Assembly: GCA_963965975.1 (NCBI GenBank) | Contig: OZ014412.1 | Location: 6,884,501 to 6,948,500 of the forward strand | Reading direction: 5' to 3' | From: Xestospongia bergquistia | Lineage: Eukaryota; Porifera; Demospongiae; Haplosclerida; Petrosiidae | DNA: 64,000 nucleotides | The notes under the pieces: generated by a model | Database searches by the model: none | What the model saw: the letters and a program-made list of their open reading frames with translations, nothing else | What the model was told of the DNA's origin: nothing | In this document: in pieces, positions 1 through 64,000 of the stretch | Layout of the letters: each line of letters opens with the position of its first letter | Position numbering within the stretch: position 1 is the first letter of the stretch | Made by a program: the position numbers and the translations under genes

Positions 1-256
1 CTCTCCTCCAGACAAAGTGGAATTAGGCAATACACACTGAAGATGTGACATATACTCACTCATTCCTGGTGTGATATAAATATGATTGATGTATGAGCCA
101 TTAGGATAACAATTTCCATTCAACATCAGGTAGATACCTAGATTATTGTAAATAAATGATATACTATATATCAAGTCCCTAACTTGAGTCTGGTGGACAG
201 TTACTAATAACTTCAATGACACATAACAAGGAGATAACCAGTTGTATTACTAACAT
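1..256 (-). CDS. Ig/FN3 receptor, 5' exons only (gene runs off the left edge)
   Basis: The first exon (184-256) begins with ATG at 256 and encodes a hydrophobic signal peptide ending in CPPDS. A short intron follows, then the start of the N-terminal Ig-like exon (Ig-a, up to 137) with the family motif IYLMFN. The rest lies outside the window. The segment is nearly identical to the start of the broken gene at 28333-30044, whose signal peptide also lacks one codon compared with other paralogs. The first intron donor reads GTTAGG, a weak site shared with that copy. Whether this gene is whole cannot be judged here. Confidence 0.6.
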
Positions 257-882
257 TGTCCTGTTTTAACAGAGCCTTTCTTTCTAATCTTCAATGTGAA
301 GCCAACATTGTATTCACCATGATATATTTTAATGCACTAAACAAGGAATGCATGGAGATCTTATGAAATGTGAATAAATTTGCATGTTTTCATAATCATA
401 GCTGAGTAAAAATATTCATTTGGCACAGTAAACTATGTTGCCAATAAACGTTATGTTAAAATATCTAAACAGATATGCATGCAATATTTGATTGAGTAAA
501 CAATATAGGACTAGATATGTATTGTTCAATCAACTATAACATGTTGAAATTGGAAGTCTTTAAAATATAAAGTAAAGTGTTGTATGCTGTGTGTGTTGGC
601 TATTGTATAAATTTCATTGTCAAATTTATAATTACATGTAAACAAATGTTTATGAGAGTGATGTAATAAATATCTACTAATAGTTATCATGTTTGATGTT
701 AATTATCATTTTCATGATTTTGAAAAATTTAGTTATTTTGTAAATTGTTTCTTTGTCCCAAGTAATGAAAATAAATCATGGTGCCTGTATATTTAAACAC
801 AAAATACCAAAAAAATGCTGTTTAAAAGTAACAGAAGTATAGCAACAGCTTCAAAACAACCACAATTATTGACAATATAAAA
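257..882. other. Intergenic: upstream region of the edge gene
   Basis: I see no coding exon in this AT-rich stretch. It matches 30045-30664 closely as part of the 30-kb-spaced duplication. The part just before the ATG shares a leader (reading TTAGAAAGAAAGGCTCTG on the minus strand) with the upstream regions of other family members, so promoter and 5' UTR probably lie here. Confidence 0.5.
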
Positions 883-1850
883 TCAAATTGGCTCGTAGAG
901 ACTAGTATTAGCAATATCTGTTGTTGGTAGTTGACATTCATCATATATCAGACTACTCTCATCAGTTGATTTAGACTGATGAAGACTTGCATTTCAATAC
1001 CTTCTATAGATAGACAGTGTATGGATTAACACAAGTTAACAGAAATATGACGGCTTACCCATTATCTGTTTGATGTTGATCTTTAGTAGCACTAGTCTGT
1101 TTTACTTAAAATCATCACTGGATTAGACTCTCCTAGTATATTACCAGCTCTCACTGTTCATACCACTGGACAATTCTCTTAATGTATAACTAAATGTTGT
1201 AGTTAACTGATGAATAACGGAGACCAATGTCTCATTCTCTAATGATACATAAAGACAAAATGGACTATAGGAGATGTTGTAGTATGTTACATCTTCACTA
1301 TTTGGACTAGTCCAGTTTACTGTAATAGTAGTAGTTGAGACATCACTCACTGAGAGACTAGTTACTGGTTTAGGAACTAGACAATAAAATAATGCCAGAT
1401 TATATTTATCCAAATATGAACTCACCATGAAGATATTATAATAAACAAAAAAATTATATCAATACAGCTTTGCCTGTAGTCAAAATAATATTAATCTGTA
1501 CACTAACTTTATTACTAGCAGGTTCCAGTATATTGTGATAGGCTCTGACTCTTATATTATCAGTTGCTATTGATATCAGCTCCTTCAATGTGATCTTGTT
1601 CTGAATATTTTCATTCACTTGTTGTGTCGCAGTGTGTGCGTCACTAGTGACATTGACAGCATATCCATCAGGTGTCCAACTGACAGTGACAGCAATGGCT
1701 GTCTTATTGACCAGAATAGGAAGAGAGGGAATAAGAGGATTATATATATATCCTGTAACTATAGAAGTAAAAGTACATACTAGTTACTCAATTTCTTATA
1801 ACATTGTTAACTTTTTGTTGTTGGTTTTCATATTATCAGCTTGATAATAA
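883..1850 (-). pseudogene. Receptor remnant: FN3-1, FN3-3 and tyrosine-tail exons
   Basis: Read on the minus strand, it holds the end of an Ig-b exon with an early stop (about 1760-1850), an FN3-1 exon lacking four residues after its WTP motif (about 1500-1740), a truncated FN3-3 exon (about 1135-1380), and a tail exon (883-1020) ending LYEPI and a stop. No signal-peptide exon, Ig-a, Ig-c or TM exon is present. The duplicate at 30665-32220 keeps about 600 bp more (rest of FN3-3, FN3-4, part of FN3-5), so this copy lost further sequence after the duplication. A dead gene fragment is the best reading. Confidence 0.75.
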
Positions 1851-2114
1851 GTAAATGAGAGTAGTATAGTAAGTATCTACAGATTAGATACAGATAGGTG
1901 GTATTGGATTTGATGCCAATACATCTAATTATCTTTTTACATTTTTGACAAAACAAAAAACTAAAACTAAAAGTACAATTAATGAAAAAAAGTTATGTTG
2001 CTTGTTTATTTAAAACATGAAATATCAAATATTTCTTAAATGTAACATTAGTGTAGCAACAACGTGAGAAAACACAATTATTGATAATATAGTCAGTAAA
2101 TATGCATTATGTAT

Positions 2115-5100
2115 TCATATGGACTCATAGACACTGGTACCAGCAATATCTGTTGTTGACAGTTGACATTCATCATATATCACTTTACTCTCATTAGTTT
2201 GTTTAGACTGATGAAGACTGTATGGCTCACAGACTTTCATTTCAATATCTTCATCAGGTCTATAGATAGACAGTGTATGAGTTAATACAAAGTAACAGAA
2301 ATATGACAACTTACTGACTCTCTTTTTGCTGTTGATCTTTAGAAGAAGTAACAACAAGTCTGTATCAAACATGAAACATCTTTACACATGTAGACTTTTC
2401 TTACCGTCTGTTATGTATAAATTGTAAGACATTAGTAATAGAACAAGCTATCACTACAGATAATAATATACCAACAAGTACACCCAGTCCAGTAATAGAA
2501 CTAGTACAAGATATTAATATAAACATTAAATATTAGAGACAATACCTTTTACTACTACCAGTACACAATGTAGGATCTGTCGTTAATGGCTCAACTAATG
2601 TTTGATCAGCAGATATTGTCCATACTCCATAACCATTAACAGTGTAACCACGTACACCAAACAGATAACAGGTGTTAGCTACCAGATTACTTATAATCAC
2701 ATTTGTACTACTTGTATTAGTTTTAATCATTGGGTTAAACTCATCACTAGGAGAACAACTGCCATTAGACTGATGAGTAGTGTACCCTATCTCATATGTG
2801 ATAATGGGATTGTCTACAGGAATATAACTAGGTACACTCCATGAGATAACACCCCATGTAGTAGACATCAAACTAGATAGTGTACTAACTGGACCAGGAA
2901 CTGAGTAGAAGATACAAATGTAGCTCGCTAGAACTGACAATGTACTTACTACTTCCAATCTGTACTTCACTGAGATCACTGAAAGGACCTCTTCCAATAG
3001 AGTTCACACCAGCTACACTCATGTTATATACATTACCAAATACTAGATCATTCACAATGACATATCTCTCAGTACTAGTCAGGTTGTATGTGATACTATT
3101 GTTACTAATGATCACAATATACTCAATGATTCTACCATTACGTAGATAGCAATCAATCTCTTCCCATATGGTTTTGTTTGCTGTCAAATTTATTGAAAGG
3201 GCCATAATTGACTTTGGGGATCCAAGTGGAACTATAAACATCTGTAATTTATCATCATTAATAATTACTTTTTACCTGAAGTAGTTTTTGTTTCATCAAA
3301 TATTTTCATTGCACTAGACTCCCCTAGTACATTACCACCTTTCAATAAAATGATATAGTTCATACCACTGATCAATTCTCTTAATGTATAATTGAATGTT
3401 GTAGTGAATTGATGAGGAGTAATAGAAACCAATGTCACATTTACTGATGCTAATGGAGGACAAAGTGGACTATAGGAGATGTTGTAGTATGTTACATAAT
3501 ACCCATCTTTACTATTGGGATCAATCCAGTTTATTGTAATAGTAGTATTTGAGACATCAGTCACTAATAGACTAGTTACTGGTGTAGGAACTAAACAATG
3601 AAGTAAGATTATTTTTATCTAAATATGAACTCACCATTAAACTAGTGTAATTACTGGTGTAGGAACTAGACAACTAATAAAAATTATCATATATATTTAA
3701 AAACAAACTCACTATTAAATCTTAACAATGTTTGTGTATTATTAATTGAAGGAAGATCTTTGTATGAGTACACATTGATGTTATATGTACTCAATGTTTG
3801 TCCATTGATTATAAATTTATGTTCTGTAGTAGATAATATTTTGTTGGTACCTACTCCAGTAGTAGAGTTAATGACAATGACATATCCATTAGTCTGTGAT
3901 GACATAGTCCAGTTGACTTTAATACTAGTCTCATTTGAAATATATGCCATCACATTGGATGGAAGACCATTAGGAACTAGAAGATGAAACCTTTGTTAAT
4001 AGAGTAACAACTATTTTGGTCCCAATGGACTACCAGTCACAGCTACAAGCAATAAATAGCTGTAATATATATAATCTGTGAAGTTTGTTGTTTTTATAAT
4101 TAAATAAACAGTAACTAATAAAGCTTTATTTATTTAGATATCTGAACAAAGTTATGGAAAACTTACTTACTTATTACTTATTAAGTAAGAAGTAGCTAAT
4201 AAAATCAACTATAATTTGTTTGTGATATCAAAAACATTAGGAAATCCATCTAATTTTGGGTCCAAATAACAGCTATAATTAATATGTATCTGTAATGTAC
4301 CTAAAGTGAAATGTGTATTACTTATGATATCAGAACAAAGTTATGAAAATTTACAAGTAGTTTATAAATGTATATGACAGTTTGTGATATCAGATGAATA
4401 GCTAAATTCCACATACCTTCTAATATCACAGTGTCACTGTAGTTCACTCCTTTATACATTGTTATACAGGTAACATTAACTGACACTCCTAGTGGATCAG
4501 GATATACCAGTAGTGTATTATTGTATATGAGGAGATCAGAATTAATTAATGTATAGATTGAGTTGTACTTCATCATTCCATTCACTAACCAGTAAACATC
4601 AGTAGTAACATTGACAGTAATTGTCATACAATTAATATGATATTGAGTGTTTTGAAGTTCAGTAATTGATGAGATAAATGTCCAATTTATCGATAAAATA
4701 ACTAATTACAAAGAATAGTTTAAAATTAAATTTTACAACATAGATACCTGATAAATGTACACTAGTTGTATTGCTAGCAGGTCCCAGTATATCTTGATAT
4801 GCTCTGACTGTGATGTTATAAGTTGTTCCTGGTATTAGTCCCTTCAGTGTCGTCACATTCCGACTACCTCCCTTTACTTGTTGTGTCACAGTCTGTGTGT
4901 CTCTAGTGGCATTGACTACATATCCGTCAGCATCAGATGGAACAGGTGTCCAACTGATCGTGATAGTGGTAGCTGTCTTGTTGACAAGAGTAGGAGGAGA
5001 GGGAATAAATCCTGGAGCTAAGTGGATTACATATGATATCAGGTAACTATAAGAGTACCTACCAGTTACTGTAAGATAACGATTTCTTATGATATCATCA

Positions 5101-6469: not shown

Positions 6470-6934
6470 GAAGCAGGGGACATTATCCAGTTCATTGTTA
6501 TAGTAGTAGCGGAGACATTAGTCACTGAGAGACTAGTTACTGGTGTAGGAACTAGACAATGTAATAAAGTCAGATTATCTTCATTCAAATATGAACTCAG
6601 TAGTAGAGTTAATGATAATGACATATCCACTAGTCAGTGTGATGACATAGTCCAGTTGATACTAGTTTCATTTAAAATATATGCCATCACATTAGATGGA
6701 GGACCACTAGAAACTAGAAGATGAAACCATTGTTAATAGAGTAACAATTATTTTGGGTTCCAATGGACTATCAGTCACAGCTACAAGTAATAAATAGCTG
6801 TAATATATATAATCTGTGAAGTTTGTTGTTTGATAATTAAGAAAGTAGTAACTAATAAGATGAACTGTTTTATTTATGTATATTAGTTGAGATTATCAGA
6901 ACAAAGTTTTGGAAAACCTTCAAGTACTACTGTA

Positions 6935-6935
<1 letters not shown>

Positions 6936-6975
<40 letters not shown>
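6936..6975. repeat. (AT)n microsatellite
   Basis: About 20 uninterrupted TA dinucleotides lie next to the Ig-c fragment. The counterpart at 37254-37286 is a few units shorter, as expected for slippage after duplication. Confidence 0.9.
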
Positions 6976-6979
<4 letters not shown>

Positions 6980-7116
6980 CTAATATCACAATGTCACTGT
7001 AGTTCACTCCTTTTTGCATTGCTATGCAGGTAACATTAACTGACACTCCCAGTGGATATACCAGTAGTGTGTTGTTATATATGAGTAGATTAGAATTAGA
7101 ATGTGGTACAACAGTC

Positions 7117-7536
7117 CAGGTCCATACGCTGACTTTTGAAAAAGGGGGTGCACATGTGGCATGAGTCAGGTTTGTCAACATGTACATGTATACATGCAGC
7201 ATGCAGAAAGACGTGAATTTATTACAGCAACAGAATCATTGAAATTCAAAATATTATTATCAATCCAAATAGGTGAGTGTTAATATCGATTCAATTATAC
7301 AAGTGAGTAATTAATTTAATTGAAAATCAAACTGGCTCCTTCCAATCTCCTGGGATGCTTTTCAAAAAAGAGTTTACATATGTAATCTACATCAATTTTT
7401 GTTTCATAATTGATGTGAATTAAAGCCAAAGCACTGAGCCTTTCTTCAGTCTGAGAGCACCTTTACTCATCTGAGTTAATCCTTGTAAAGGGGGGTCCAC
7501 ATGCACCCCCCTGCACCCCCCCTGGGTACGGGCCTG
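7117..7536. mobile_element. Small non-autonomous DNA transposon (MITE, hAT-like ends)
   Basis: The left end reads CAGGTCCATACGCTGAC here (CAGGCCCATACGCAGAC in the other copy). The right end, reverse-complemented, reads CAGGCCCGTACCCAGGGGGG, so the ends form imperfect terminal inverted repeats. Both ends run into G-rich GGGGGTGCACATG stretches. No transposase is encoded in about 420 bp. It sits inside the Ig-b exon sequence GTGGTACAACTGTCATATC of a broken receptor. Flanking cagtc and ctgtc suggest a 5-bp target duplication with one change. The same insertion is at 37443-37818. The hAT assignment rests only on the terminal sequence. Confidence 0.65.
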
Positions 7537-8175
7537 CTGTCATATCAGAAGGAAGTTCAACAACACTGAAGTTTAAAATTACTACATGTTCTACAGTTGA
7601 TCAGTAACAAATGACAGTGTGTACAAGTACAATATGAGATATAAGTTACTAAATATATTAACAGTGATCATGTTGGTAGTAGGATCAGAACAACTACTGG
7701 GTAGACAACACACAAATATATTGTTATTATCATTTCTATTAAATAAATTTATTAATTTTTTGTTCTTTAGGTCTGTATACAGTAATGTTACCAGGATTAT
7801 TAGAGACAATACAGTAAAGAGGTTTTTGATTTTATTGTTGTCCATCAGGATTAACTCACTCTCCTCCAGACAAAATGGAATTAGGCAATACACATTGAAG
7901 ATGTGAAATATAGTTGTTTGTTTCTGGTGTGATGTAAATATGATCAATGTAGGAGCCATTAGGATAGCAATTTCCACTGAACATTAAGTAGATACCTACA
8001 ATATTTATCAATAAATGATATACCATGCATAAGGTCACTTACCTGAGTCTGGTGGACACTTACTAATAACGTCACTGACACATAACAAGAAGATAGTAGC
8101 CAGTAGTATTACTGACATTGTCATATTATTAAAAAAGGCTTTCTTTCTAATATTCAGTACATTAAATAAGTATAC

Positions 8176-9794: not shown

Positions 9795-12700
9795 TTATAA
9801 ACTAAAGTTAGCATATGTACTGTTCATTGACAGATAGAACTGGATGACATCATAAATGGAAGTATATTGTTCCTGTACAAGACAACATCAGATATCAGTC
9901 TATTATTAATAAACTACTCTATTATTACCAGTGTAGTAACAGCTCCTGGTTTGCTTCTTTTAACAGCTTTGGTCACTTGAAATACATCTATTACACCTTC
10001 TGTTTTACACTGTTCTAGAGCAATACTTAGTGAACAATATACTCCAGAACGACTCACTGTGTCACTAAAGGAAAAGGAGACAGAAGAAGGAAATATTGTC
10101 ATGATGTGTACAATTTCTCTACCTGCAATGTACAACTATTGGTCCTCCTCCAATCTTTTGTTGTACTTTAATAACTCCATCAATAACTTGTAACAATGTC
10201 TGAGGTTGTCTGACACAGCCATCATTAGGCCAGTCCAGTACTTGGAACTGAACTAAATTACAAGCCAAGCCCTTAAAATATTCTATCATTAACTTCATTT
10301 CTTTTGTGATAACTATCTCACCTCATTAGATAAATCGCTAACAAGAAAATTTCTCTTAATATATCCTTGCTTCTTTTCCTCTGAAGTACATCTTATACAG
10401 TATTCACTATATGTACGATCTGTTGTTGGCCAGTACTGATAACATGTTTCCTAATTAATTGCAATAAAATATTGTATAAAGCATAGAAGACTTACCTTTC
10501 CTTTCTCTTCTAGTTCACATAACATAACAATAGCAGATACTTCATAATCCATTATCATCTTCCAAAAGTCTCTGGTAGTGTTCTCCATTGGACTCTGAGC
10601 TATAATGAATGCTTTCTTCTCACGATAACCCTATAAATGAAGAATTGATTAATAAACAACACATTAATTTATTAACTCACATTTAAGAAAGAGGCATGAA
10701 TATAGCCTTTAGTTTCCTGAAGTGTAACAAGAAATCTTTCAGCTAAAAATATATTGTCAATAGTATTAACTTTATTGTCCAACAGTCCTTACGTGGTAGG
10801 TATTTGTCAGAACGATTTTTAGCACTATTGACTATTGCTGTATTACAGTGAATATCATCAGGATCAGGAGTTATTTGAGGTAAAAGCTTAAACTGCAATT
10901 CTAGACCTGTCTGGTATGTTTTGGAATCAGGTACTTTAAGCTTTTGAAGCTCAAATTGGTACTTATATGCTGTGATATCTGTTTCTCCACAAATAATTGT
11001 TTCTAGTACAGCATCATGAGCAAAAGCATACTGTTCCTATAAAGGTAATACATTGTTTTAGCTACAGTTCTTGATATCATGACTTACAGCTGTTTGTACC
11101 ATCTTCATTCTCTGTTCTCTGAGTCTATTGATAATACCAGCAATATCTACTACTCCCTCTCTATTAGCCTGTTCAAGAGCTATGTCCACAGCAATATATG
11201 TACCTGTACGACCTACACCAGCACTACAATGGACTAAGATGGGACCTTTAGATGGAGACCATGTATTAGTCACTCGTTTGTGAAGGATCATCAGAGGAGT
11301 AGCATAATCAGGTACTCCTTGATCAGGCCAGGAAGTAAGATGATATTGTGTTATGTCATGAGTGTGATTGGATCCATCCTCTATCTATTAACAGACAAAT
11401 CTACATGTATTTAACAGTTATCTTTACTTTCACTTTGAGACTTCGAATAGTGAAATCTGGTAAAACTTGTTCATCCAGTATTGTAACAATGAATGGTCCA
11501 AAGGTAGTGGATTCTTTATAAGGATCTGGCCAATATTGTTCACATTTACTTCTTGATCCTTCCTTTAAATTAGTTACCATGATGATAATTTGAGGTCTCT
11601 CCTGCCAAATTAGACGCCAGAAATCAACCAATGTTTTAGTCATTGGTCCTACACAAAAATAACAACATTTATAATTCTACAGAATCTATCATATTTACAT
11701 GTCTACCTTGTGATGCTATAAACTTCTTAGGACAACTATAGCCCTAATATACATTATAGTAATAATAGTAAATAATTACATCAAGTACTAGTAACTTACA
11801 TCTATATAACTAGCATTGATATATTCTCTTTGACATTGATTGAGTTCAGGATTATGTATAAGGACAATCCTATTGTCATCATCTGTACAATGATCATAAC
11901 ATGTGTTACCAGTATGTACTTATATTGAGTATATATACTACTAATAATTACATAATATAAACTACATAGTAGATATCTGTATTATATATGGTATTGTACT
12001 ACGTACATATTGTAATGATCATAACAAGACATTTATACCATATATGGTATTGATATCATATGTACTACATACATGTTGTGATGATCATAACAAGACATTT
12101 ATACCATATAGGGTATTGATATCATATGTACTACATACATGTTGTGATGTTCTTGAATCGGTTGAGAAGTTTATTCTCTTTACTAAAACCTACTGTACAA
12201 GGTTTGTCTTCTCCTTTATACAGCCCCTATTAGTTAAAAATAATGACAAAATTAAACTTCCAGGTACATTACATTTGTTTATCTAACTTACTGAAATAAA
12301 AATATGACATTTTAAACTAATTATAACATTTTGCTTACATAATGATATGATCATACAATGGTTTCATTCTTTACCTTATATTGTTCACAAAAATCTGCAT
12401 TACTATTACCATGACAACTGGCTACATGAGTACCAAGATCATCAACTGATATAGGAAGAGTAGGAGGGATCTGAGGATCAAAATTAATAGTGGGAGGAGG
12501 AGAGTGAACTGGAGAGGAGGGAACAGCATACAATGTACCACCATTTTGTGATTTGTTACCAGTAGTATTAGTGGGTATAGGAAGGTCAGTAATTTCTGAA
12601 TATTCTAACAATACAAACACTTTTACTTGTAATATATTAATATATTGTATACCTGGTTCGGGTAATGATATCTCAATGTTAGCTTGTTGTTCTACACTCT

Positions 12701-21489: not shown

Positions 21490-21549
21490 TGTCTTGTTAT
21501 TAAGAAAACCTTCCTTTCTAATCTTCAATACATTCACTACTAAATATAC

Positions 21550-37252: not shown

Positions 37253-37253
<1 letters not shown>

Positions 37254-37286
<33 letters not shown>
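37254..37286. repeat. (AT)n microsatellite
   Basis: About 16 TA units, the counterpart of 6936-6975. Confidence 0.9.
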
Positions 37287-37289
<3 letters not shown>

Positions 37290-37442
37290 TAGCTATATAT
37301 ACCTTCTAATATCACAGTGTCACTGTAGTTCACTCCTTTTTGCATTGCTATGCAGATAACATTAACTGACACTCCCAGTGGATGTACCAGTAGTGTGTTG
37401 TTATATATGAGTAGATTAGAATTAGAATGTGGTACAACAGTC

Positions 37443-47994: not shown

Positions 47995-48690
47995 TTATGC
48001 ATTCATATTAACTCATCGACACTGGTACCAGCAATATCTGTTGTTGACAATTGAAAGTCATCATTAACTGATACTCCAAGTGGATCAAGATATATCAGTA
48101 GTGTGTCGTTGTATATGAGGAGATCAGAATCAATTAATATATACATTGAGTTGTACTTCATCACTCCATTCACTAACCAGTAAACATTATTAGTAACATT
48201 GACAAGTTATGTGACAGCTAACAGAGTTTAGAAATCCAGTAATAGAAAATAATGAAGTCATTGATAATATACCAATAGCTGTGTGTAAGATATTGCAATA
48301 AACCACAAAATTATCTGCTTTACCTGTAGTCAAATTAATTATAGTTTTTATGCTAACATTATTAACAGCAGGTCCTACTATATTTTAATAGGCTCTGACT
48401 GTGATGTTATAATTTCTTTCTGGTATCAATGTCACTTAGTTCTTATTACCTCCCATCACCTTTTGTGTTACAGTGTGTGGCATTGACTACATATCCATCA
48501 GCATGACATGGAACAGGTGTCCAAATAACAGTGATAGCAATGACTGTCTTGTTGACCAGAATAGGAGGAGAGGGAATGAGATGATTACAACCTGTAGCTA
48601 TAGTAGTAAAAATATTTACCAGTTAATGTAAGATAAAGATTTGTTATGACATTATCAACTTTTGTTGTTGGCTTTCACTTTATCAGTTGA
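47995..48690 (-). pseudogene. Compact remnant: Ig-b end, FN3-1, TM-like exon, Ig-c piece, tail piece
   Basis: On the minus strand: the end of Ig-b (about 48610-48680), FN3-1 with internal deletions and a stop (about 48330-48560), a hydrophobic segment with AIGILSMTSLFSITGFL (about 48235-48290) after an acceptor-like CACACAG, an Ig-c fragment (48065-48205) and the last tail codons (to about 48005). Copies are at 53275-53975 and 62640-63290. All are broken. Confidence 0.65.
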
Positions 48691-51900: not shown

Positions 51901-52628
51901 AAGTGTTTGATTCTCAATACTACAACTGTATCCAAAGTGTGGTGATACACAATTAAATTTGTTATTTGTATTAATGTAATACCATCCAAAATTCTTTTCC
52001 AGTCCACTTAAAATACACTGTAGTGTGTATTGTTGTGGTAGAACTGTTATATTAGAAGGAAGTTCAACAATAATGAAGTTTAAGATTGCTACATGTTCTA
52101 AAGTAGAACAGTAACAAATGACAGTGAATACTAGTACAATACGAGAGATATAGCTTACTGAATATATTAACAGTGATCATGCTGGTAGTAGGATCAGAAC
52201 AACTACTAGGTAGACAACACTTGAATGTATTGTTATTATCATTTCCATCAGCCTCATTAAATGATATACCACCATTAGGTCTGTATAGACTGATACTAGC
52301 TGGATTATTAGTTTTGTCACAATAAAGAGGATTAGTATTACAACTAAGAGTGTTTCCATTAGGATCAACCCACTCTCCTCCAGACAAAGTAGTATTAGGT
52401 AATGCACACTTCAGAGGAGAATAGTTAGCATGATCTTTTGTGATGTATATATGATAAATATAGGAGCTATTGGGATAACAATCTCCATTGAACATCAGGT
52501 AGATACCTAGAATATTGTCAATATATGCTATAGTATTAATTAAGTCACTCACCTGAGTTTGGTGGACAGTTACTAATAACTTCATTGACACATAACAAGA
52601 TGATAGTAACCAGTAGTAGTATTGACAT
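48955..52628 (-). CDS. S4: intact Ig/FN3 receptor with ITIM-like tail and divergent Ig-b
   Basis: Twelve exons give an open frame of 949 aa: 52553-52628, 52159-52506, 51738-52097, 51412-51687, 51079-51363, 50557-50823, 50193-50507, 49790-50071, 49386-49740, 49245-49340 (TM), 49155-49199 and 48955-49099 (tail). The tail has EPYSL, VIYDEC and the final SVYESI. The Ig-b exon is of the second type (FGWYYI, NCVSPHFGYSC, TWYAEEINSG) otherwise found only in gene B, whereas the remaining exons follow the common type. Acceptors, donors and phases are all regular. The FN3-1/Ig-c intron is 48 nt and stop-free. Likely a surface recognition receptor; ligand unknown. Confidence 0.85.
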
Positions 52629-53274: not shown

Positions 53275-53975
53275 AGTCAGTTAATATGTATTATGCATTC
53301 ATATTAACTAATCGACACTGGTACCAGCAATATATGTTGTTGACAATTGAAAGTCATCATTAACTGATACTCCAAGTGGATCAAGATATATCAGTAGTGT
53401 GTCGTTGTATATGAGGAGATCAGAATCAATTAATGTATACATTGAGTTGTACTTCATCACTCCATTCACTAACCAGTAAACATTATTAGTAACATTGACA
53501 AGTTATGTGACAGCTAACAGAGTTTAGAAATCCAGTAATAGAAAATAATGAAGTCATTGATAATATACCAATAGCTGTGTGTAAGATATTGCAATAAACC
53601 ACAAAATTATCTGCTTTACCTGTAGTCAAATTAATTATAGTTTTTATGCTAACATTATTAACAGCAGGTCCTACTATATTTTAATAGGCTCTGACTGTGA
53701 TGTTATAATTTCTTTCTGGTATCAATGTCACTTAGTTCTTATTACCCCCCATCACCTTTTGTGTTACAGTGTGTGGCATTGACTACATATCCATCAGCAT
53801 GACATGGAACAGGTGTCCAAATAACAGTGATAGCAGTGACTGTCTTGTTAACCAGAATAGGAGGAAAAGGAATGAGAGGATTACATATACAACTTGTAGC
53901 TATAGTAGTAAAAATATTTACCAGTTAATGTAAGATAAAGATTTGTTATGACATTATCAACTTTTTGCTGTTGGC
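53275..53975 (-). pseudogene. Compact remnant, second copy
   Basis: Same order and lesions as 47995-48690: Ig-b end, broken FN3-1, TM-like segment, Ig-c piece and tail piece. It lies between S4 and S6. Confidence 0.65.
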
Positions 53976-54256: not shown

Positions 54257-57200
54257 TCAAATTGACTCATAGACACTGGTACCAGCAATATCTGTTGTTG
54301 ACAGTTGACACTCATCATATATCACTTTACTCTCATCAGTTGGTTTAGACTGATGAAGACTGTATGGCTCACAGACTTGCATTTCAATATCTTCATTAGG
54401 TCTATAGATAGATGGTGTATGAGTTAACTCAAGATAACAGTGTATGAATTAACATTACTTTATTTATTTAAATAACAGAATATGACAACTTACCCACTGT
54501 CTGTTTGCTGTTGATCTTTAGAAGAAGTAACAACTAGTCTGTATCAAACAAGATAGATCGTTATACATGTAGACTTTTCTTACCGTCTGTTATGTATAAA
54601 TTGTAAGACATTAGCAATAGAACAAACTATCACTACAGATAATAATATACCAACAAGTACACCCAGTCCAGTAATAGAACTAGTACATATCAATATAAAT
54701 ATCAAATATTAGAGACAGTACCTTTTGCAACTTTCAGTACACAATGTAGGATCTGTTGTCGATGACTCAACTAATGTTTGATTAGCAATAACTGTCCATG
54801 CTCCATAACCATTAACTGTATAACCACGTACACCAAACAGATAACAGGTGTTACCTATCAGATCACTTATAATCACATTTGTATTACTTGTATTAGTTTT
54901 AATCATTGGATTAAACTCATCATTAAGAGAACAACTACCATTAGATTGATGAGTAATGTACCCTATCTCATATGTGATAATGGAATAGTCTACAGGAATA
55001 TAACTAGGTACACTCCATGAGATAACAGCCCATGTAGTAGACATCAAACTGGATAGTGTACTAACTGGACCAGGAACTGAGTAGAAAATATAAATGTAAC
55101 TCACTATAACTGACAATGTACTTACCAGTTCCAATCTGTACTTCACTGGAATCACTGAATGGACCTCTTCCAATAGAGTTCACACCAGCTACACTCATGT
55201 TATATACATTACCAAATACTAGATCATTCACAATGACATATCTCTCAGTACTGGTCAGGTTGTATGTCATACAATTGTTACTAATGATCACAACATACTC
55301 AATAATTCTACCATTACGTAGATGACAATCAATATCTTCCCATATGATTTTGTTTGATATCAAATTTATTGAAAGAGCCATAATTGACTTTGGGGACCCA
55401 AATGGAACTATAGATTATATTATTCAAACAATATTAGTAATATATTTTACCTGACGTGGGTTTTGTTTCATTAAATATCATCACTGGATTAGACTCTCCT
55501 AATACATTACCAGCTCTCATTGTGATAATATAGTTCATACCACTGAGCAATTTACTTAAAACATAACTAAATGTTGTAATGGACTGATGAGAAGTAACAG
55601 AGACCAATGTCACATTCACAGGAAATAACTCATAGCAAAGTGGACTATAGGAGATGTTGTAATATGTTACATAGTTACCATCATTACTGTTGAGACTAGT
55701 CCAGTTTATTGTAATAGTAGTAGTTGAGACATTAGTCACTAATAGACTAGTTACTGGTATAGGAACTAAACAATGAAGTAAGATTATTTTTATCTAAATA
55801 TGAACTCACCATTAAACCTTAACAATGTTTGTGTACTATAAACTGAAGGAAGATCTTTATATGAGTACACACTGATGTTATAATATGTACTCAATGTTAG
55901 TCCATTGAATATAACTTCATCTTCTGTAGTAGATAATATCTTGTTAGTACCTACTCCAGTAGTAGAGTTAATGACAATGACATATCCATTAGTCTGTGAT
56001 GACATAGTCCAGTTAACTTTGATACTAGTCTCATTTAAAATATATGCCATCACATTAGATGGAGGACCACTAGGAACTAAAAGATAAAACCATTGTTAAT
56101 AGAGTATCATCTATTTTGAGTCCTAATCGACTATCAGTCACAGTTACAACTAATAAATATCTGTAATATAAATAATCTGTGAAGTTTATTGTTTGCTAAT
56201 TAAGAAAGAAGTAACTAATAAAACTAACAATGTTTTGTTTATGTATATTAGTTAAGATATTAGAATAAAATTATAAACAACATCTCCAATAGATACCTAT
56301 AATTAATATATATATGTAATATATTTAAAGTGAAGTGTATATCAGTTAAGATATCAGAACAAAGTTATGGAAAACCTACAAGTAGTTTATAAATGTGTGT
56401 AAGTAGTTTATAAGATAGTTTACAATATCAGATTAATAGCTATATAACTTGTAATATCACAGTGTCACTGTAGTTCACTCCTTTATACATTGCTATACAG
56501 GTAACATTAACTGATACTCCCAGTGGATCAGGATATACCAGTAGTGTGTTGTTGTATATGAGGAGATCAGAATCAATTAATGTATACATTGAGTTGTACT
56601 TCATCACTCCATTCACTAACCAGCAAACATCAGTAGTAACATTGACCGTAGTTGTGATACAATCAATATGATATTGAGTGTTTTGAAGTTTAGTAATTGA
56701 TGAGATAAATGTCCAATTTACTGATAAAATAACTAAAACACAAAGAAAAGATAAAATAAACTTCTGTACCATAAATACCTGAAAATAATGTCTGTACACT
56801 AGTTGTATTACTAGCAGGTCCCAGTATATCTTGATATGCTCTGACTGTGATGTTATAAGTTGTTGTTGGCATTAGTTCATTCAGTGTCATAACATTCTGA
56901 CTACCTCCCTTTACTTGTTGTGTCACAGTGTGTGTGTCACTAGTGGCATTGACTACATATCCATTAGCATCAGATGGAACAGGTGTCCAACTGACAGTGA
57001 TAGTGGTAGCTGTCTTGTTGACAAGAGTAGGAGGAGAGGGAATAAATCCTGGAGCTGAGAGAATTACAAATGACATCATGTAACTATAGTAGTACTTACC
57101 AGTTACTGTAAGATAACGATTTCTTATGACATTGTCAATATTTTCATAACACCTATATTTATGATCACCATTGTTGTTCAATTGACTAAATATTCCACTA

Positions 57201-57308
57201 TTGATCTTCTCACCATTCCATGTCATATTAATAGTACGAGATATTGTATTGTTATTATTGTAAATGATATGACTTTCATTAATACAACTGTATCCAATGG
57301 TTGGTAAT
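54257..57308 (-). pseudogene. S6: tyrosine-tail receptor lacking its 5' end
   Basis: Recognisable exons run from the second half of Ig-b (57100-57308) through FN3-1, Ig-c, FN3-2, FN3-3, FN3-4, FN3-5 (54722-55076), TM (54584-54679) and tail (54494-54538, 54257-54401; the stop follows SV.ESI-like codons). At 57308/57309 the Ig-b exon stops abruptly and sequence from a phosphatase juxtamembrane exon begins, so the signal peptide, Ig-a and half of Ig-b are missing. The donor after Ig-c reads AAGTTATAT where paralogs have AAGGTATAT, which would shift the frame. Either a real recombination product or an assembly junction. Confidence 0.7.
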
Positions 57309-59554
57309 GATCATCAACTGATATGGGAAAAGTAGGAGGGATCTGAGGATCAAAACTAATAGTGGGAGGAGGAGCGTGAACTGGAGAGGAGGGAATAGAT
57401 TATAATATATATGTTATACCACCATTTTGTAATTCATTACCAGTAGTATTAGTGAGTATAGGAAGGTCAGTAATTGCTGAATATTCTAACAATACAAACA
57501 ATATTACTTGTAATATATTAACATATTGTATACCTGGTTCAGGTAATGATATCTCAATATTAGCTTGTTGTTTTATATACTCATAACCATCTGTATTTGA
57601 TAAAGAGGAATGACTGGACATTTTCAATTTATTAACTACAGCATACTGTTGTTCTTCTAGTGAACATGAAACAATAACAATATTCTAATTAGGTCTACTG
57701 CACCTGTTTCTGTTTCAATTGTTTTCATTTCAGTTAGTATAAAGTTTTCATTATTATAAATTTGTTTTGACTTCCTGTTTAGTCTTCTGTGTCTGTTTTT
57801 AACCATACACACTTTTAATATATGTATGTATACTGATCTTACCTTACAACACATACTACAATTAATATCACTATTATTAGTAATATAGTCAAAACAATAG
57901 CACTAACAACTCCACTTGCTATACCTACAACTGAAAAATATATATGTGGTTAAACTTTACATTAATATATTTTAGGCCCTACTATAAATTAAACCTTATC
58001 TTACCTCCATTAGCAGCCACTGACTTTGGTTCTGTTGTTGATGGCAAAACTAATGTTTGATTTGCAGCAACTCTCCATACTCCATAACCATTAACAGTGT
58101 AACCACGTACACCAAACAGATAACAGGTGTTATTTATCAAATCACTTATAGTCAAATTTCTACTACTTAAATTAGTTTTAATCATTGGGTTAAACTCATC
58201 ATTAGGAGAACAACTACCATTAGACTGATGAGTAGTGTACCCTATCTCATATGTGATAATGGGATAGTCTATAGGAATATAACTAGGTACACTCCATGAA
58301 ATAACAGCCCATGTAGTAGACATCAAAATGGATAGTATACTGACTGGACCAGGAACTGAATAGAAAATATAAGTGTAATTCACTATAACTGACAATGTAC
58401 TTACTAGTTCCAATTTGTACTTCAACTGGATCACTGAATGGACCTCTTCCAATAGAATTAACACCAGCTACACTCATGTTATATAGATTACCAAATACTA
58501 AATCATATACAATGATATATCTCTCAGTACTAGTGAGGTTGTATGTGATACTATTGCTACTAATGATCACAATATACTCAATAATTCTACCATTATGTAG
58601 ATGACAATCAACATCTTCCCAAGTGATCTTGTTTACCATCAAATTCACTGAAACAGCCATAATTGACTTTGGGGATCCAAGTGGAACTATAAACATCTGT
58701 AATTTATCAACATTAATAGTAACATTTTACCTGAAGTGGGTTTGGTTTCATCAAATATTATCATCGGGCTAGATTCTCCTAGTACATTACCAGCTCTTAC
58801 CGTAATGATATAGTTCATACCACTAGACAATTCTCTTAATGTATAGCTGAATATTTTAGTGGACTGATGAGGACTAACAGAGACAAATGTTACATTAACT
58901 GATGTTAAAGGAGGACAAAATGGACTATAGGAGATGTTGTAGTATGTTATGTAGTTCCCTTCTTCACTATTAGGACTAGTCCAGTTTATTGTAATAGTAG
59001 TAGTTGAGATATTAGTCACTAATAGACTAATTACTGGTTTAGGAACTAAACAATGAAGTAAGGTTATTTTTATCTAAATATGAACTCACCATTAAACCTT
59101 AACAATGTTTGTGTACTATTAATTGTAGGAAGATATTTATATGAGTACACACTGATGTCATATGTACTCAATGTTAGTCCATTGATTATAACTTCATCTT
59201 CTGTAGTAGATAATATCTTGCTAGTACCTACTCCAGTAGTAGAGTTAATGACAATGACATATCCATTAGTCTGTGATGACATAGTCCAGTTGACTTTAAT
59301 ACTAGTCTCATTTAAAATATATGCCATCACATTAGATGGAGGACCACTAGGAACTAGAATATGAAACCATTGTTAATAGAACGTCATCTAATTTGGAGCC
59401 TTATAGACTACCAGTTGCAGCTACAACTAATAAATATCTGCAATATGTGTAATCTGTAAAGCTTGTTGCTTGTTGTTTGTTTCTTAAAAAAACACTAGCT
59501 AACAAAACTAACTATTTTTGTATATTTATATTAGTTATGATATCAGAAAAAAGT
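57309..59554. repeat. 2.25-kb block, apparently identical to 42678-44923
   Basis: This is the right-hand partner of the block in gene C. Its left edge falls inside exon sequence on both sides, with only GA shared at the junction. Confidence 0.85.
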
Positions 59555-61165
59555 TATCCAAAAACTACATGTACTATAGTAGCAGTATATATATGATATC
59601 AAATGAATAGCTATATACCTTGTAATATCACAGTGTCACTGTAGTTCACTCCTTTATACATTGCTATACAGGTAACATTAACTGATACTCCAAGTGGATC
59701 AGGATATACCAGTAGTGTGTTGTTGTATATGAGGAGATCAGAATTAATTAATGTATACATTGAGTTGTACATCATCACTCCATTCACTAACCAGTAAACA
59801 TCAGTAGTAACATTGACAGTAATTGTGATACAATCAATATGATATTGAGTGTTTTGAAGTTCAGTAATTGATGAGATAAATGTCCAATTTACTGATAAAA
59901 TAGCTAAAACACAAAGGAAAAATATAAAAAATTCTGTAGTATTAAATACCTGAAAATAATGTCTGTACACTAATTGTATTACTAGCAGGTCCCAGTATAT
60001 CTTGATATGCTCTGACTGTGATATTATAAGTTGTTCCTGGTATTAGTCCCTTCAGTGTCATAACATTCTGACTACCTCCCTTTACCTGTTGTGTCACTGT
60101 GTGTGTGTCACTAGTGGCATTAACTACATATCCATTAGCATCAGATGGAACAGATGTCCAACTGACAGTGATAGTGTTAGCTGTCTTGTTGACAAGAGTA
60201 GGAGGATAAGGAGTAAATCCTGGAGCTGAGAGAATTACAAATGACTTCATGTAACTATAGTAATACTTACCAGTTACTGTAAGAGATTGATTTCTTCTGA
60301 CATGGTCAACTTTTTCATAACACCTATATTTATGATCACCATTGTTGTTTGATTGACTAAATATTCCACTATTGATCTCCTCTCCATTCCATGTCATATT
60401 AATAGTACGAGATATTGTATTGTTATTATTGTAAATGATATGACTTTTATTAATACAACTGTATCCAATGCTTTGTAATGAACAATCAAATTCAATACTC
60501 TGACTATTATATACATAATACCATCTGAAATGTCTTTTAATTCCACTTAGAATACACTGAACTGTGTATTGTTGTGGTACAACTGTCATATCAGAAGGAA
60601 GTTTGACAACACTGTGTGATATGATCTGTACATGTACTACAGTAGATCAGATCAGTAACAAATGACAGTGTGTACTAGTACAATGAAATATAACTTACAA
60701 AATATATTAACAGTGATCATGTTGGTAGTAGGATCAGAACAATTAGTGGGTAGACAACACTTGTAGTAATTTTTATGTGGAACAGCTTCAGCAAATGTTA
60801 TACCACCATTAGGTCTGTATAGACTGATACTAGCTGGATTATTAGTTTTGTCACAATGAAGAGGATTAGTATTACAACTAAGAGTGTTTCCATTAGGATC
60901 AACCCACTCTCCTCCAGATAAAGCAATATTAGGTAATGCACACTTAAGAGGAGAATAGTTGGGTTCTCCTTTTGTGATGTAAATATGATTGATGTATGAA
61001 CCATTAGGATAACAATCTCCATTGAACATCAGATAGATACCTAGAACATTATCAATAAACATAGTACTATATATTATTAAGTCACATACCTGAGTTTGGT
61101 GGACAGTTACTAATAACTTCATTGACACATAACAAGATGATAGTAGCCACTAGTAGTGTTGACAT
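57400..61165 (-). CDS. D: PTP-less Ig/FN3 receptor, twin of gene C up to its stop
   Basis: Exons are 61090-61165 (signal peptide), 60699-61040 (Ig-a), 60271-60636 (Ig-b), 59950-60225 (FN3-1), 59619-59903 (Ig-c), 59090-59353, 58731-59045, 58405-58686 and 58005-58355 (FN3-2 to FN3-5), 57843-57924 (TM), 57704-57792, 57534-57656 and 57400-57485. The frame is open for 978 aa and ends at the same TAA as gene C. From FN3-2 on, the protein equals that of C; the first five exons differ by scattered substitutions. No PTP exons follow, because the sequence switches at 57309 into gene S6. The stop lies 91 bp before that switch, so the predicted protein is unaffected. Likely a membrane receptor with a cytoplasmic part of about 100 residues. 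Confidence 0.75.
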
Positions 61166-61695
61166 TGTCTTACTTAAAGCCTTTCTCTTTAATCTTCAGT
61201 GTATAGTCAACATTCTACATATATCAAAGATCGGATGTTTACTGTACTAAACAAGTAATTGTACATCTTATGAAATATGAATAACTATTATAAACTTGGT
61301 TAGTTATTATAAGTAAAAATAACAGTAACCATGTTGACAATAAACACTACATTATTTACTCAACCATACATTTAATTACAGAGTTGTTTAGCATAGTTTA
61401 ATGTAGTGTGAAATAAATCATGATGTCTGTATATTTGAAACATGAAAACATGAAATATAGCTTAAAATGTAACATAAGTGTAGAAACAGCATGAAAACAA
61501 TTGCAATTATTAACAACAATGGTCAATGAGATTGGGCAATGTACTTACCTAATGAGTCTATATAAAATTAAAGTAAATGTAAGCTTACAAATAATAAAGA
61601 TTTATTATACTATCTGTTATGTATAAATTATAAGATATTACAAGTTTACACTAAAGATAACAATATGACAACTTACTTTATCAAAGATGATACAT
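61166..61695. other. Upstream region of gene D
   Basis: Near copy of 46535-47064 with the same leader. No exon is seen. Confidence 0.4.
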
Positions 61696-61960
61696 CTATA
61701 TACATCCTCCTCTAAACAATGTAGTATTAGGTAATACACACTTCAGAGGAGAATAGTTAACATGGTCTTTTGTGATGTAAATATGATTGATGTATGAGCC
61801 ATCAGGATAACAACTTCCATTGAACATCAGATAGATACCTAGAATATTATCAATAAATGATATACTACTGATTAAGTCACATACCTGAGTTTGGTGGACA
61901 GTTACTAATAATTTCATTGACACATAACAAGATGATAGTAGCCAGTAATAGTACTGACAT
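61696..61960 (-). pseudogene. Two-exon mini-gene, second copy
   Basis: It encodes the same predicted ~73-aa product as 47065-47329 (ATG at 61960, stop at 61696), with the same signal peptide and truncated Ig-a. It lies 0.5 kb upstream of gene D in the same orientation. Confidence 0.55.
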
Positions 61961-62639
61961 TGTCATATTATTAACAGAGCCTTTCTCTTAAATCTTCAGT
62001 ATATATATCCAACATTCTATATATATTAAAGGTGGGATGCTTACTGCATTAAACAAGTAAACATAGATTTTATGAATAATGAATAACTGACTAAGTTATT
62101 GTAAAGAACCAAAACTTAATATTATAAGTAATAATAACAGTAACCATGTTGACAATAAACACTACATTATTTTTTCAACCAAACATTTACTTACAATTCT
62201 TTAGCATAGTTTAATGTAGTGTTTGGACTAGATATGTGCTGTCAATAGTCAAGACTCAATTATCACAACTAACTATATCATATTGAAAATTAGAATTCTG
62301 TAAATATAAACTGAAGAGTGCATGTTGTGCTGTTGTCTTTCACACTGTCAGTTTAAAAATTACACATATATGTACAAAGTTTGATGTAATGTAATAAATG
62401 ACTACCAATAGGTATCAGGTTTGATACCAATTCATGTAATTAGCATTTTCACAATTTTCTCAAATTAGTTAGTTATTTTGAAGTTGTTTCTTTGGTCCAA
62501 CTAATGAAAAAGGTTATGATGTCTGTATATTTAAAACATGGAATACCAAATATTGTTTAAATTTAACATAAGTGTAGAAACAGTATGAAAACAACTACAA
62601 TTATTAATAACATAGTCAGTTAATATGTATTATGCATTC
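61961..62639. other. Upstream region of the second mini-gene
   Basis: Matches 47330-47994; no exon is recognised. Confidence 0.4.
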
Positions 62640-63290
62640 ATATTAACTCATCGACACTGGTACCAGCAATATCTGTTGTTGACAATTGACATTCATCATT
62701 AACTGACACTTCAAGTGGATCAGGATATACCAGTAGTGTGTTGTTGTATATGAGGAGATCAGAATCAATTAATATATACATTGAGTTGTACTTCATCACT
62801 CCATTCACTAACCAGTAAACATTATTAGTAACATTGACAAGTTATGAGACAACTAACAGAGTTTAGAAATCCAGTAATAGAAAATAATGAAGTCATTGAT
62901 AATATACCAATAGCTGTGTGTAAGATATTGCAATAAACCACAAAATTATCTGCTTTACCTGTAGTCAAATTAATTATAGTTTTTATGCTAACATTATTAA
63001 CAGTAGGTCCTACTATATTTTGATAGGCTCTGACTGTGATGTTGTAATTTCTTTCTGGTATCAATATGACTTAGTTCCCATCACCTTTGGCATTGACTAC
63101 ATATCCATCAGCACGACATGGAACAGGTGTCCAAATAACAGTGATAACAATGACTGTCTTGTTGACCAGAATAGGAGGAAAGGGAATGAGAGGATTACAA
63201 CCTGTAGCTATAGTAGTAAAAATATTTACCAGTTAATGTAAGATAATGATTTGTTATGACATTATCAACTTTTTGCTGTTGGCTTTCACT
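62640..63290 (-). pseudogene. Compact remnant, third copy
   Basis: Ig-b end (63230-63290), FN3-1 with deletions (about 62965-63180), TM-like segment (about 62865-62920), Ig-c piece (62700-62830) and tail piece. Here the second half of FN3-1 reads open into the hydrophobic segment and ends at 62825. Confidence 0.65.
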
Positions 63291-63559
63291 TTATCAGTTG
63301 ATAATAATTGAATGAGAGTAGTATAATAAGTATCTATAGATTAGATGTAAGTTTGATTTAATTGGGTTTGATGTCAATTCATCTAATTGTCATTTTTTGA
63401 CATATACATGATCTATTTCCATTAATTATGTAAATGACACACACTTCATGAAAATTAGCTGAAACATACAAAATATCAATGTGAACTTAAAGTACAACAG
63501 CAACAACATGAAAAAAACACAATTATTGATAACATAGACAGTCAATATGTAATATGTAT
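63291..63559. other. Intergenic spacer
   Basis: AT-rich 3' flank of the edge gene, homologous to 48690-48954 and 53976-54256. No exon is seen. Confidence 0.4.
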
Positions 63560-64000
63560 TCATATTGACTCATAGACACTGGTACCAGCAATATCTGTTG
63601 TTGACAGTTGACACTCATCATATATCACTTTACTCTCATCAGCTAGTTTAGACTGATGAAGACTGTATGGCTCACAGACTTTCATTTCAATATCTTCATC
63701 AGGTCTATAGATAGACAGTGTATGAGTTAACACAAATAACAGAAATATGACAACTTACCCACTGTCTGTTTGATGTTGATCTTTAGAAGAAGAGATAACT
63801 AGTCTGTATCAAAGATAATACAACTTTATACATGTAGACATTTCTTACCGTCTGTTATGTATAAATTGTAAGATATTAGCAATAGAACAAGCTATCACTA
63901 CAGATAACAATATACCAACAAGTACACCCAGTCCAATAATAGAACTAGTACAAGATATCAAATATAAACATTAAATATTAGAGACAGTACCTTTTGCAAC
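63560..64000 (-). CDS. Tyrosine-tail receptor, 3' exons only (gene runs off the right edge)
   Basis: Exons are 63991-64000 (end of FN3-5), 63849-63944 (TM, same length and frame as in S1 and S4), 63759-63803 and 63560-63704 (tail). The tail keeps the three tyrosines and ends SVYESI. It occupies the same place before the compact remnant, mini-gene and gene D that S4 occupies before gene C. Confidence 0.75.

What the first reader, a model, noticed from the sequence alone, without database searches (positions are those of the whole stretch)
1..64000. Tandem cluster of Ig/FN3 receptors on alternative phosphatase or tyrosine-motif tails
The same ectodomain plan (Ig, Ig, FN3, Ig, four FN3) is joined to tandem PTP domains in A and C and to an ITIM-like tail in S1, S2, S4 and others. 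Seen directly: the exon order, tails and tandem layout. Known: paired receptors with matching ectodomains and opposing signalling tails typify immune receptor clusters, and cnidarian Alr allorecognition genes are clustered Ig-type receptors with tyrosine motifs. Inferred: this may be a recognition locus in which a phosphatase-tailed and an SH2-recruiting receptor share ligands.
Basis: partly seen in the sequence, partly recalled or inferred. Interest (0 to 1): 0.85.

Follow-up and report, generated by a model that had tools for sequence, protein, structure and literature searches.

The report
Shared receptor fronts, two opposing tails
An animal genome carries arrays of surface-receptor genes in which one and the same outer part is attached either to a tyrosine phosphatase or to a short tail of conserved tyrosines, which looks like an unusual form of the paired receptors that immune and self-recognition systems use.

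Summary
The layout is real. The window lies in a ~125 kb minus-strand array of an unnamed animal genome. Genes share eight ectodomain exons (Ig-like, Ig-like, FN3, Ig-like, four FN3), then end in tandem PTP domains or a short tyrosine tail. FN3 and PTP are confirmed by profiles; the Ig calls rest on Cys/Trp pattern and weak hits. Gene A is intact (1573 aa); its PTP D1 has canonical motifs and is constrained (dN/dS 0.14, ectodomain 0.67). S1 is intact; C has a stop codon before its PTP exons; S2 and S4 are frameshifted. D1-D7 exons do not sort clearly by tail; D8, next to the tail, does. The closest relative of tyrosine-tail gene 1 among the open genes compared is a PTP-tail gene (19, 5.6%). 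Three further arrays each carry almost only one tail. YDEC is invariant in 27 of 27 open tails read; the terminal motif is a strict ITIM in 13 of 13 window-type and 5 of 14 other tails. SHP-type SH2-SH2-PTP genes are expanded too. Best reading: paired receptors whose antagonist carries its own phosphatase. Allorecognition and the taxon are untested.

The parts
1..256 (-). start of open tyrosine-tail gene 16 (signal peptide and part of D1); continues outside the window to -3800
886..1732 (-). gene fragment (D3-like, D6-like, tail exon with LIYDEC and SLYEPI)
   Evidence: L041
2115..5975 (-). S1 (gene 15): intact tyrosine-tail receptor, 12 exons, 955 aa: SP 5975-5876, D1 Ig-like 5830-5489, D2 Ig-like 5431-5063, D3 FN3 5017-4748, D4 Ig-like 4701-4417, D5-D8 FN3 3976-3713, 3590-3276, 3231-2950, 2900-2546, TM 2500-2405, 2359-2315, tail 2259-2115
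2115..2259 (-). tyrosine tail exon: EPYSLH, VIYDEC, SVYESI at the C terminus
6484..8142 (-). decayed fragment (SP, D1, parts of D4, D5, D6)
9795..16315 (-). A (gene 13): intact PTP-tail receptor, 25 exons, 1573 aa
11088..12226 (-). A, PTP domain 1 exons: WPDQGVP and HCSAGVGRTG
9795..10742 (-). A, PTP domain 2 exons: WPNDG and HCSDTVSRSG, probably weak or inactive (inference)
17926..21501 (-). S2 (gene 12): tyrosine-tail gene with several frameshifts
17312..17527 (-). remnant of a PTP-gene juxtamembrane exon downstream of the S2 tail
23281..27668 (-). B (gene 11): PTP-tail gene without detectable D3-D5, most of D6, D8 and TM exon; catalytic exon split over two frames
28336..30053 (-). broken short tyrosine-tail gene (gene 10)
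30668..32109 (-). fragment (D3, D6, parts of D7 and D8, tail) downstream of S4
32490..36286 (-). S4 (gene 9): tyrosine-tail gene, frameshift in D6
36803..38441 (-). decayed fragment, duplicate of 6484-8142
40103..46534 (-). C (gene 7): PTP-tail gene, all 25 exons, stop codon TAA about 42771-42769 in the juxtamembrane exon before the PTP exons
47077..47353 (-). SP-D1 fragment
48006..48577 (-). fragment (D3, D4 part, tail part)
48955..52628 (-). gene 5: intact tyrosine-tail receptor, 949 aa, variant D2
53314..53873 (-). fragment (D3, D4 part, tail part)
54257..57310 (-). gene 4b: tyrosine-tail gene without SP, D1 and part of D2
57310..61192 (-). gene 4a: PTP-type gene cut off in the juxtamembrane exon (no PTP exons), joined at 57310 to gene 4b
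61708..61984 (-). SP-D1 fragment
62641..63187 (-). fragment (D3, D4 part, tail part)
63560..64000 (-). 3' end of open tyrosine-tail gene 2 (starts outside the window at 67278)

Best explanation
This is a multigene family of type I receptors built on one ectodomain and two kinds of tail: a paired-receptor system. Shown: the same eight-exon ectodomain sits on a tandem-PTP tail or on a short tail with three conserved tyrosines; ectodomain exons have been exchanged between the two classes by recombination; PTP domain D1 is conserved while the ectodomain diverges. Inferred: both classes bind the same kind of ligand at cell contacts. The tyrosine-tail receptor is phosphorylated, probably by Src-like kinases, and recruits SH2 proteins (SHP-type phosphatases at the terminal ITIM-like site; Nck-like adaptors, by recall, at YDEC). 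The PTP-tail receptor, drawn to the same contact, removes phosphate from its sister's tail and neighbours. The ratio of the two classes at a contact would set the response. Recognition of self or of microbes is the likely use; which of the two is open.
For: Open members of both classes: PTP A (13), 19, 24; tyrosine-tail 1, 2, 5, S1 (15), 16. Nearest-neighbour test without copy 4a: D1-D7 p 0.15-0.82 for sorting by tail, D8 p 0.005. Open gene 1 and PTP gene 19 differ by 5.6% over D1-D8, less than either differs from any open gene of its own class (C counted with the PTP class). Pair 18/19: 95.2-99.6% DNA identity in ten 250-column blocks, introns included, then 94.4, 91.2, then 70.7, 52.9, 41.2% from the end of D8 on. 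Recombination: sum-of-squares statistic above all 300 shuffles, incompatibility lower than in all 300 shuffles. dN/dS PTP D1 0.14, D2 0.35, ectodomain 0.67. Best 30 of 66 tail matches read: YDEC and a terminal Yxx[ILVM] in 27 of 27 open tails. Arrays, D4/tail/PTP places: C2:4.95-5.12 24/24/0; C9:2.16-2.73 20/19/0; C9:1.99-2.15 20/1/19; C2:6.83-6.96 23/16/6, fragments included. Eight SHP-type loci with two SH2 and one PTP match each; L001 best hit PTPN11 7.6e-197. Ten kinase matches with an SH2 match beside each in C6:1.621-1.697 Mb.
Against: No expression, ligand, phosphorylation or binding data. Gene 18 of the closest pair has a frameshift in D6; the closest pair with both genes open (1/19) differs by 5.6%, and other open cross-class pairs by 7.1-14.1%. 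With copy 4a kept, D1, D3, D6 and D7 lean towards sorting by tail (p 0.05-0.09). Extreme shared runs are in 9 of 30 cross-tail but 12 of 25 same-tail pairs. Mean within- and between-class distances are nearly equal for D8 too, so its sorting is by nearest neighbour only. Three of the four main arrays carry almost only one tail. Recent duplication alone can make similar ectodomains. Ectodomain dN/dS is below 1. Strict ITIM in only 5 of 14 tails of other arrays. Many copies are broken. Ig folds are not confirmed.
Confidence: 0.55

Rival explanations
1. Plain birth-and-death of an adhesion-type receptor phosphatase family: shared ectodomains reflect recent duplication and concerted evolution, the short tail is a lineage that lost its phosphatase, and there is no functional pairing.
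For: Large recent duplications in the window (8.4 kb at 96.3%); many broken copies; PTP-exon remnants lie downstream of the tail in 4 of 12 tyrosine-tail loci examined (genes 12, 18, 20, 21); same-tail pairs share extreme runs more often than cross-tail pairs (12 of 25 against 9 of 30).
Against: The short tail keeps its three tyrosines in array groups on C2, C7 and C9 (27 of 27 open tails among the 30 best of 66 matches) and fills two large arrays of its own, so it is not a simple loss product.
Confidence: 0.25
2. Receptors for microbes or symbionts rather than for self/non-self: a diversified innate repertoire with inhibitory control.
For: Size of the family (95 D4 places, fragments included) and mosaic variation of D1/D2; for FcR/KIR-type paired receptors direct interaction with pathogens has been proposed as the ancestral function (PMC2413239, passages read).
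Against: No microbial ligand data; eight-domain adhesion-like ectodomains also fit cell-cell contact. The two uses cannot be told apart here.
Confidence: 0.3
3. The tyrosine tail is an activating or cytoskeletal dock (pYDEC for an Nck-like adaptor), not an inhibitory ITIM; the PTP-tail class is then its antagonist.
For: YDEC is in 27 of 27 open tails read while the strict ITIM is in 18 of 27. The Nck SH2 preference for pYDE is recalled, from no call.
Against: All 13 window-type open tails have a strict ITIM, and SHP-type genes are expanded in this genome.
Confidence: 0.35

Closest known systems
Vertebrate paired immune receptors (FcR/FCRL, KIR, Xenopus XFL; PMC2413239, passages read)
   Same: many-gene, species-specific expansion; similar ectodomains on opposing tails; ITIM-type tail on one side
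   Different: there the other side associates with ITAM-bearing subunits; here it carries its own tandem PTP domains; FN3-rich ectodomain; Ig folds unconfirmed
Hydractinia Alr allorecognition complex (PMC11067881, passages read; Huene 2022 not read)
   Same: clustered single-pass receptors with many likely pseudogenes; ITIM/ITAM motifs on candidate genes according to passages of PMC12065747
   Different: the passages read mention no phosphatase tail; polymorphism and histocompatibility shown there, untested here
Botryllus fester co-receptors FcoR (PMC12065747, passages read)
   Same: ITIM, hemITAM or core tyrosine motifs on Ig-type receptors in one locus; alternative splicing can swap motifs
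   Different: variable-type Ig, sushi and C2-type Ig ectodomain; in the passages read, CD45-like RPTPs appear only as separate expressed proteins
LAR/PTPRS, PTPRA and CD45-type receptor phosphatases
   Same: tandem PTP, active-type D1; among the best PDB hits
   Different: an Ig-like domain lies between FN3 domains; D2 has HCSDTVSRSG; part of a large array with phosphatase-less siblings
SHP-2/PTPN11
   Same: SHP-type genes are expanded here and are likely SH2 effectors (the effector role is inference)
   Different: separate genes elsewhere in the genome, not part of the receptor array

Membership tests
Receptor-type PTP, tandem-domain | signal peptide, single TM, tandem PTP domains | tested here: met
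   gene A; SP and TM judged by eye from the sequence, no predictor run
Receptor-type PTP, tandem-domain | D1 catalytic Cys/Arg loop and WPD Asp | tested here: met
   HCSAGVGRTG and WPDQGVP in A, C, 19, 24; C is stopped upstream. D2 of 19 lacks the HCX5R form
LAR-type RPTP | N-terminal Ig block followed by uninterrupted FN3 block (definition recalled) | tested here: not met
   an Ig-like exon D4 lies between FN3 D3 and the FN3 exons D5-D8
Paired immune-type receptors | closely similar ectodomains on different tails | tested here: met
Paired immune-type receptors | opposing signals and shared ligand | not testable with these tools
   needs binding and signalling assays
Paired immune-type receptors | activating member couples to an ITAM adaptor | not tested
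   no adaptor search made
ITIM receptor | [SILV]xYxx[ILV] in the cytoplasmic tail (consensus recalled) | tested here: met
   13 of 13 window-type open tails; only 5 of 14 from other arrays
ITIM receptor | recruits SHP when phosphorylated | not testable with these tools
   SHP-type genes exist
Immunoglobulin superfamily | Ig fold of D1, D2, D4 | tested here: inconclusive
   weak hits only, failed folds
Alr/fuhc-type allorecognition locus | polymorphism that predicts fusion or rejection | not testable with these tools
   one assembly, no haplotypes or phenotypes

The most novel reading that the evidence does not exclude
A receptor family that carries both its phosphorylatable tail and its own phosphatase on interchangeable copies of one ectodomain, exchanged between the classes by recombination, with more than 80 copies of the D4 exon (fragments included) in four arrays and SHP-type effectors expanded in the same genome: a self-contained phosphotyrosine recognition system that may be the cell-surface allorecognition receptor repertoire of an early-branching animal.
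Probability: 0.25. Interest if true: 0.92.

Novelty: new variant of a known kind. Interest (0 to 1): 0.72.

Why it matters
Paired receptors are known with ITIM tails against ITAM-coupled partners. A family in which the antagonist is a receptor phosphatase with the same ectodomain, mixed by cross-class recombination, would be a different solution to the same control problem, in an animal genome whose SHP effectors are expanded too. It gives intact genes (A, S1, gene 5, 1, 19) with which ligand sharing and phosphatase-on-sister-tail action can be tested directly.

Tried and rejected
AlphaFold of D1 and D2 with window-only alignments failed (pLDDT 35 and 34), so no fold search was run. PDB profiles for D1, D2, D4 and the wider D1 and D2 sets gave no significant Ig hit. 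A kinase tail was considered: no tyrosine-kinase match in the listed rows falls in the receptor arrays, but only 129 of 1201 candidates were scored and the list is cut, so this is no proof. The rRNA search gave a machine error and was not repeated. Literature: searches for sponge/Amphimedon/ITIM/allorecognition/RPTP/paired-receptor/SHP combinations; in the titles and abstract starts listed I saw no description of this family. Several lists were cut (15 of 32, 20 of 47, 12 of 761), and only open-licence papers are held. PMC12065747, PMC2413239 and PMC11067881 were read as passages; the other papers only as listings.

Own errors corrected: one search stopped on a file name; one search failed on a row with stop codons (rerun without it); one search used an overwritten variable and its gene models are void (redone); one search read minus-strand loci in the wrong orientation (redone). 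In some searches the D6 row of gene 9 came from the downstream fragment, and D8 of PTP genes ran some codons too far; drop or trim these. omits gene 9 but uses the untrimmed D8. In one search gene 9 looks open only because of that borrowed D6; it is frameshifted. Rows dropped: exon copies lacking an acceptor, donor or 70% of the exon; 4a in the second run; two second halves of split PTP exons before the count of 25.
Full report
What the window is. The window is G000:C2:6884501-6948500 of a 146.46 Mb, 21-contig genome. I fetched 80 kb below and 60 kb above it. Homologous exons run from window coordinate 73891 down to about -51575, on the minus strand apart from one weak plus-strand D2 hit. The array is therefore about 125 kb, and the window is its upper middle part.

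Gene plan. S1 (5975-2115) has 12 exons and encodes 955 aa with one stop, at the end. A signal-peptide exon is followed by eight exons of one domain each, joined by phase-1 introns, then TM, a short exon and the tail. Pfam marks four fn3 stretches in S1 and five in A; by position these are D3 and D5-D8 (the match of stretch to exon is mine). D1, D2 and D4 have the Cys...Trp...Cys pattern of Ig domains but no significant match; the nearest are D1 to CRTAM and NCAM in the PDB at E 0.38-0.89 and one C9 copy of D2 to PDGFR-Ig, Ig_3 and I-set models at 0.005-0.026. Gene A (16315-9795) has 25 exons and encodes 1573 aa: the same ectodomain, another TM, a tyrosine-bearing juxtamembrane part and two PTP domains. 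Among the closest solved relatives of the PTP part are PTPRS, LAR, PTPRA and CD45.

State of the copies. Open from start to stop with splice signals: tyrosine-tail genes 1, 2, 5, S1 (15) and 16; PTP-tail genes A (13), 19 and 24. Broken: C by one stop codon in the juxtamembrane exon, B by deletion and a split catalytic exon, S4 and gene 18 by a frameshift in D6, S2 by several frameshifts, 4a/4b by a junction that removes the PTP exons of one and the start of the other, 22/23 by a 4.4 kb insertion in D7. Gene 20 has a shortened D7 and its frame runs past the usual stop. Within the window only A has a complete open PTP tail.

Ectodomains are shared across tails. For each exon I asked whether the nearest relative of a copy has the same tail. 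With the near-duplicate 4a removed, D8 trimmed and the wrong D6 row dropped, D1 to D7 show no sorting (p 0.15, 0.82, 0.17, 0.46, 0.46, 0.29, 0.28), D8 does (12.5 of 14, p 0.005). With 4a kept, D1, D3, D6 and D7 are borderline (p 0.055, 0.050, 0.087, 0.067). Mean distances within and between classes are nearly equal for all eight exons, D8 included (first version). Over D1-D8 the open tyrosine-tail gene 1 differs from PTP-tail gene 19 by 5.6%; gene 1 differs from the other open tyrosine-tail genes by 8.1-11.6%, gene 19 from the other three PTP-tail genes compared by 7.4-13.6%. Other open cross-class pairs differ by 7.1-14.1%. Neighbours 18 (tyrosine tail, D6 frameshifted) and 19 (PTP tail) are 81.9% identical in the block upstream, 95.2-99.6% over ten blocks of 250 alignment columns, introns included, then 94.4 and 91.2%, and fall to 71, 53 and 41% from the end of D8 on; amino-acid differences are 10 of 113 in D1, 0 of 121 in D2, 8 of 91 in D3, 2 of 94 in D4, 1 of 87 in D5, 10 of 93 in D7, 20 of 112 in D8. 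Eleven copies with all eight exons show strong recombination signals; 21 of 55 pairs have extreme shared runs, 9 of 30 cross-tail and 12 of 25 same-tail. Rate differences between domains can inflate the first of the two statistics.

Selection. Among PTP-tail genes 13, 7, 19, 24 the pooled dN/dS is 0.14 for PTP D1, 0.35 for D2, 0.52 for the linker, 1.05 for TM plus juxtamembrane and 0.67 for the ectodomain. Among five tyrosine-tail genes it is 0.58 for the ectodomain and 0.80 for TM to tail, the last from only 95 codons. The enzyme is conserved; the ectodomain is freer to vary, but positive selection is not shown.

The tails. Of 66 tail matches in the genome I read the best 30: 27 open tail exons, 3 fragments or broken. 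Open refers to the tail exon, not to the whole gene; one (L028) runs past the usual stop. All 27 have EPY[SI], YDEC and a Yxx[ILVM] at or near the end. The strict ITIM is met in 13 of 13 of the window type (ten here, three on C7) and in 5 of 14 from the other arrays, where the rest end in SVYECM (8) or NVYECI (1). So 'ITIM-like' is fair for this array, while YDEC is constant. In 4 of 12 tyrosine-tail loci examined, remnants of PTP-gene exons lie downstream of the tail exon, so pieces of the two gene types have been joined in the past.

Genome-wide. D4 finds 95 places, the tail exon 66, the family's PTP catalytic exon 25 at 74% identity or more after I dropped two second halves of split exons (the D4 and tail searches scored all candidates, the PTP search 150 of 178). 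By region, D4/tail/PTP: C2:4.95-5.12 24/24/0; C9:2.16-2.73 20/19/0; C9:1.99-2.15 20/1/19; the window array 23/16/6; elsewhere 8 D4 and 6 tails. These counts include fragments. Of the four main arrays the window's is the one in which both tails are interleaved. One complete gene read in each of L023, L024 and L025 keeps the same exon order; L025 also holds shorter copies.

Downstream parts. PTP and SH2 searches show SHP-type genes: L001 on C7, L002 on C3, and a tandem row of six (L003-L008) on C3:1.265-1.283 Mb; each of these eight has two SH2 matches beside the PTP match. Seven of the eight have one long open frame, L007 is cut short. Pfam confirms two SH2 and one PTP in the two that I scanned, L001 and L003, and L001 matches PTPN11 over most of its length. 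L005 has WPE for WPD and L008 lacks the HCX5R form. On C6:1.621-1.697 Mb there are ten kinase matches with an SH2 match beside each; their Src-like nature is recalled, SH3 was not tested.

Reading. The most economical account is a paired-receptor family in which the antagonist brings its own phosphatase. Shown are the two tails, the shared and exchanged ectodomain, the constrained enzyme and the conserved tyrosines. Inferred are ligand sharing, phosphorylation, SH2 recruitment and the action of the PTP tail on the sister tail. Rivals are plain duplication without pairing, microbe sensing, and an adaptor-type rather than inhibitory tail. Allorecognition is possible but rests on analogy with Alr and fuhc, on which I read only passages.

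Noticed in passing
L001-L008; C3:1.265-1.283 Mb, C3:0.917 Mb, C7:8.318 Mb; also C6:0.200 Mb: Expansion of SH2-SH2-PTP (SHP-type) genes, mostly one open frame each, some with altered catalytic motifs (L005 WPE, L008 QCSNGIGRTG), one cut short (L007); on C6 two SH2 and two PTP matches side by side.
   Followed up: partly
C6:1.621-1.697 Mb: Row of ten kinase matches each with an SH2 match beside it.
   Followed up: no
window -34346 to -38714 (C2:6845786-6850154): A 4.4 kb insertion with a long gag-pol-like open frame of a Ty3/Gypsy-type retroelement (by recalled motifs) splits D7 of PTP-type gene 22/23.
   Followed up: no
window +80 to +124 kb (C2:6.965-7.008 Mb): Seven plus-strand open frames of 1238-1562 aa, most with a similar start region, next to the receptor array; family not identified.
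   Followed up: no
C5:0.44-0.78 Mb and C10:0.97-1.25 Mb: Further large PTP arrays, about 38-61% identical to A in the catalytic exon; their ectodomains were not read.
   Followed up: no
window 28336-30053; -29183 to -30041: Short tyrosine-tail copies; the first has D1-D4 only and is broken, the second runs SP, D1, TM, tail.
   Followed up: no
window 886-1732, 30668-32109, 48006-48577, 53314-53873, 62641-63187: A decayed fragment with D3-like and further ectodomain exons, mostly with its own tail exon, follows 7 of 12 tyrosine-tail loci in the array; old duplication or alternative 3' end, not settled.
   Followed up: partly
window 11995-12149: 66-base tandem repeat, mostly in an intron of the A phosphatase part.
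   Followed up: no
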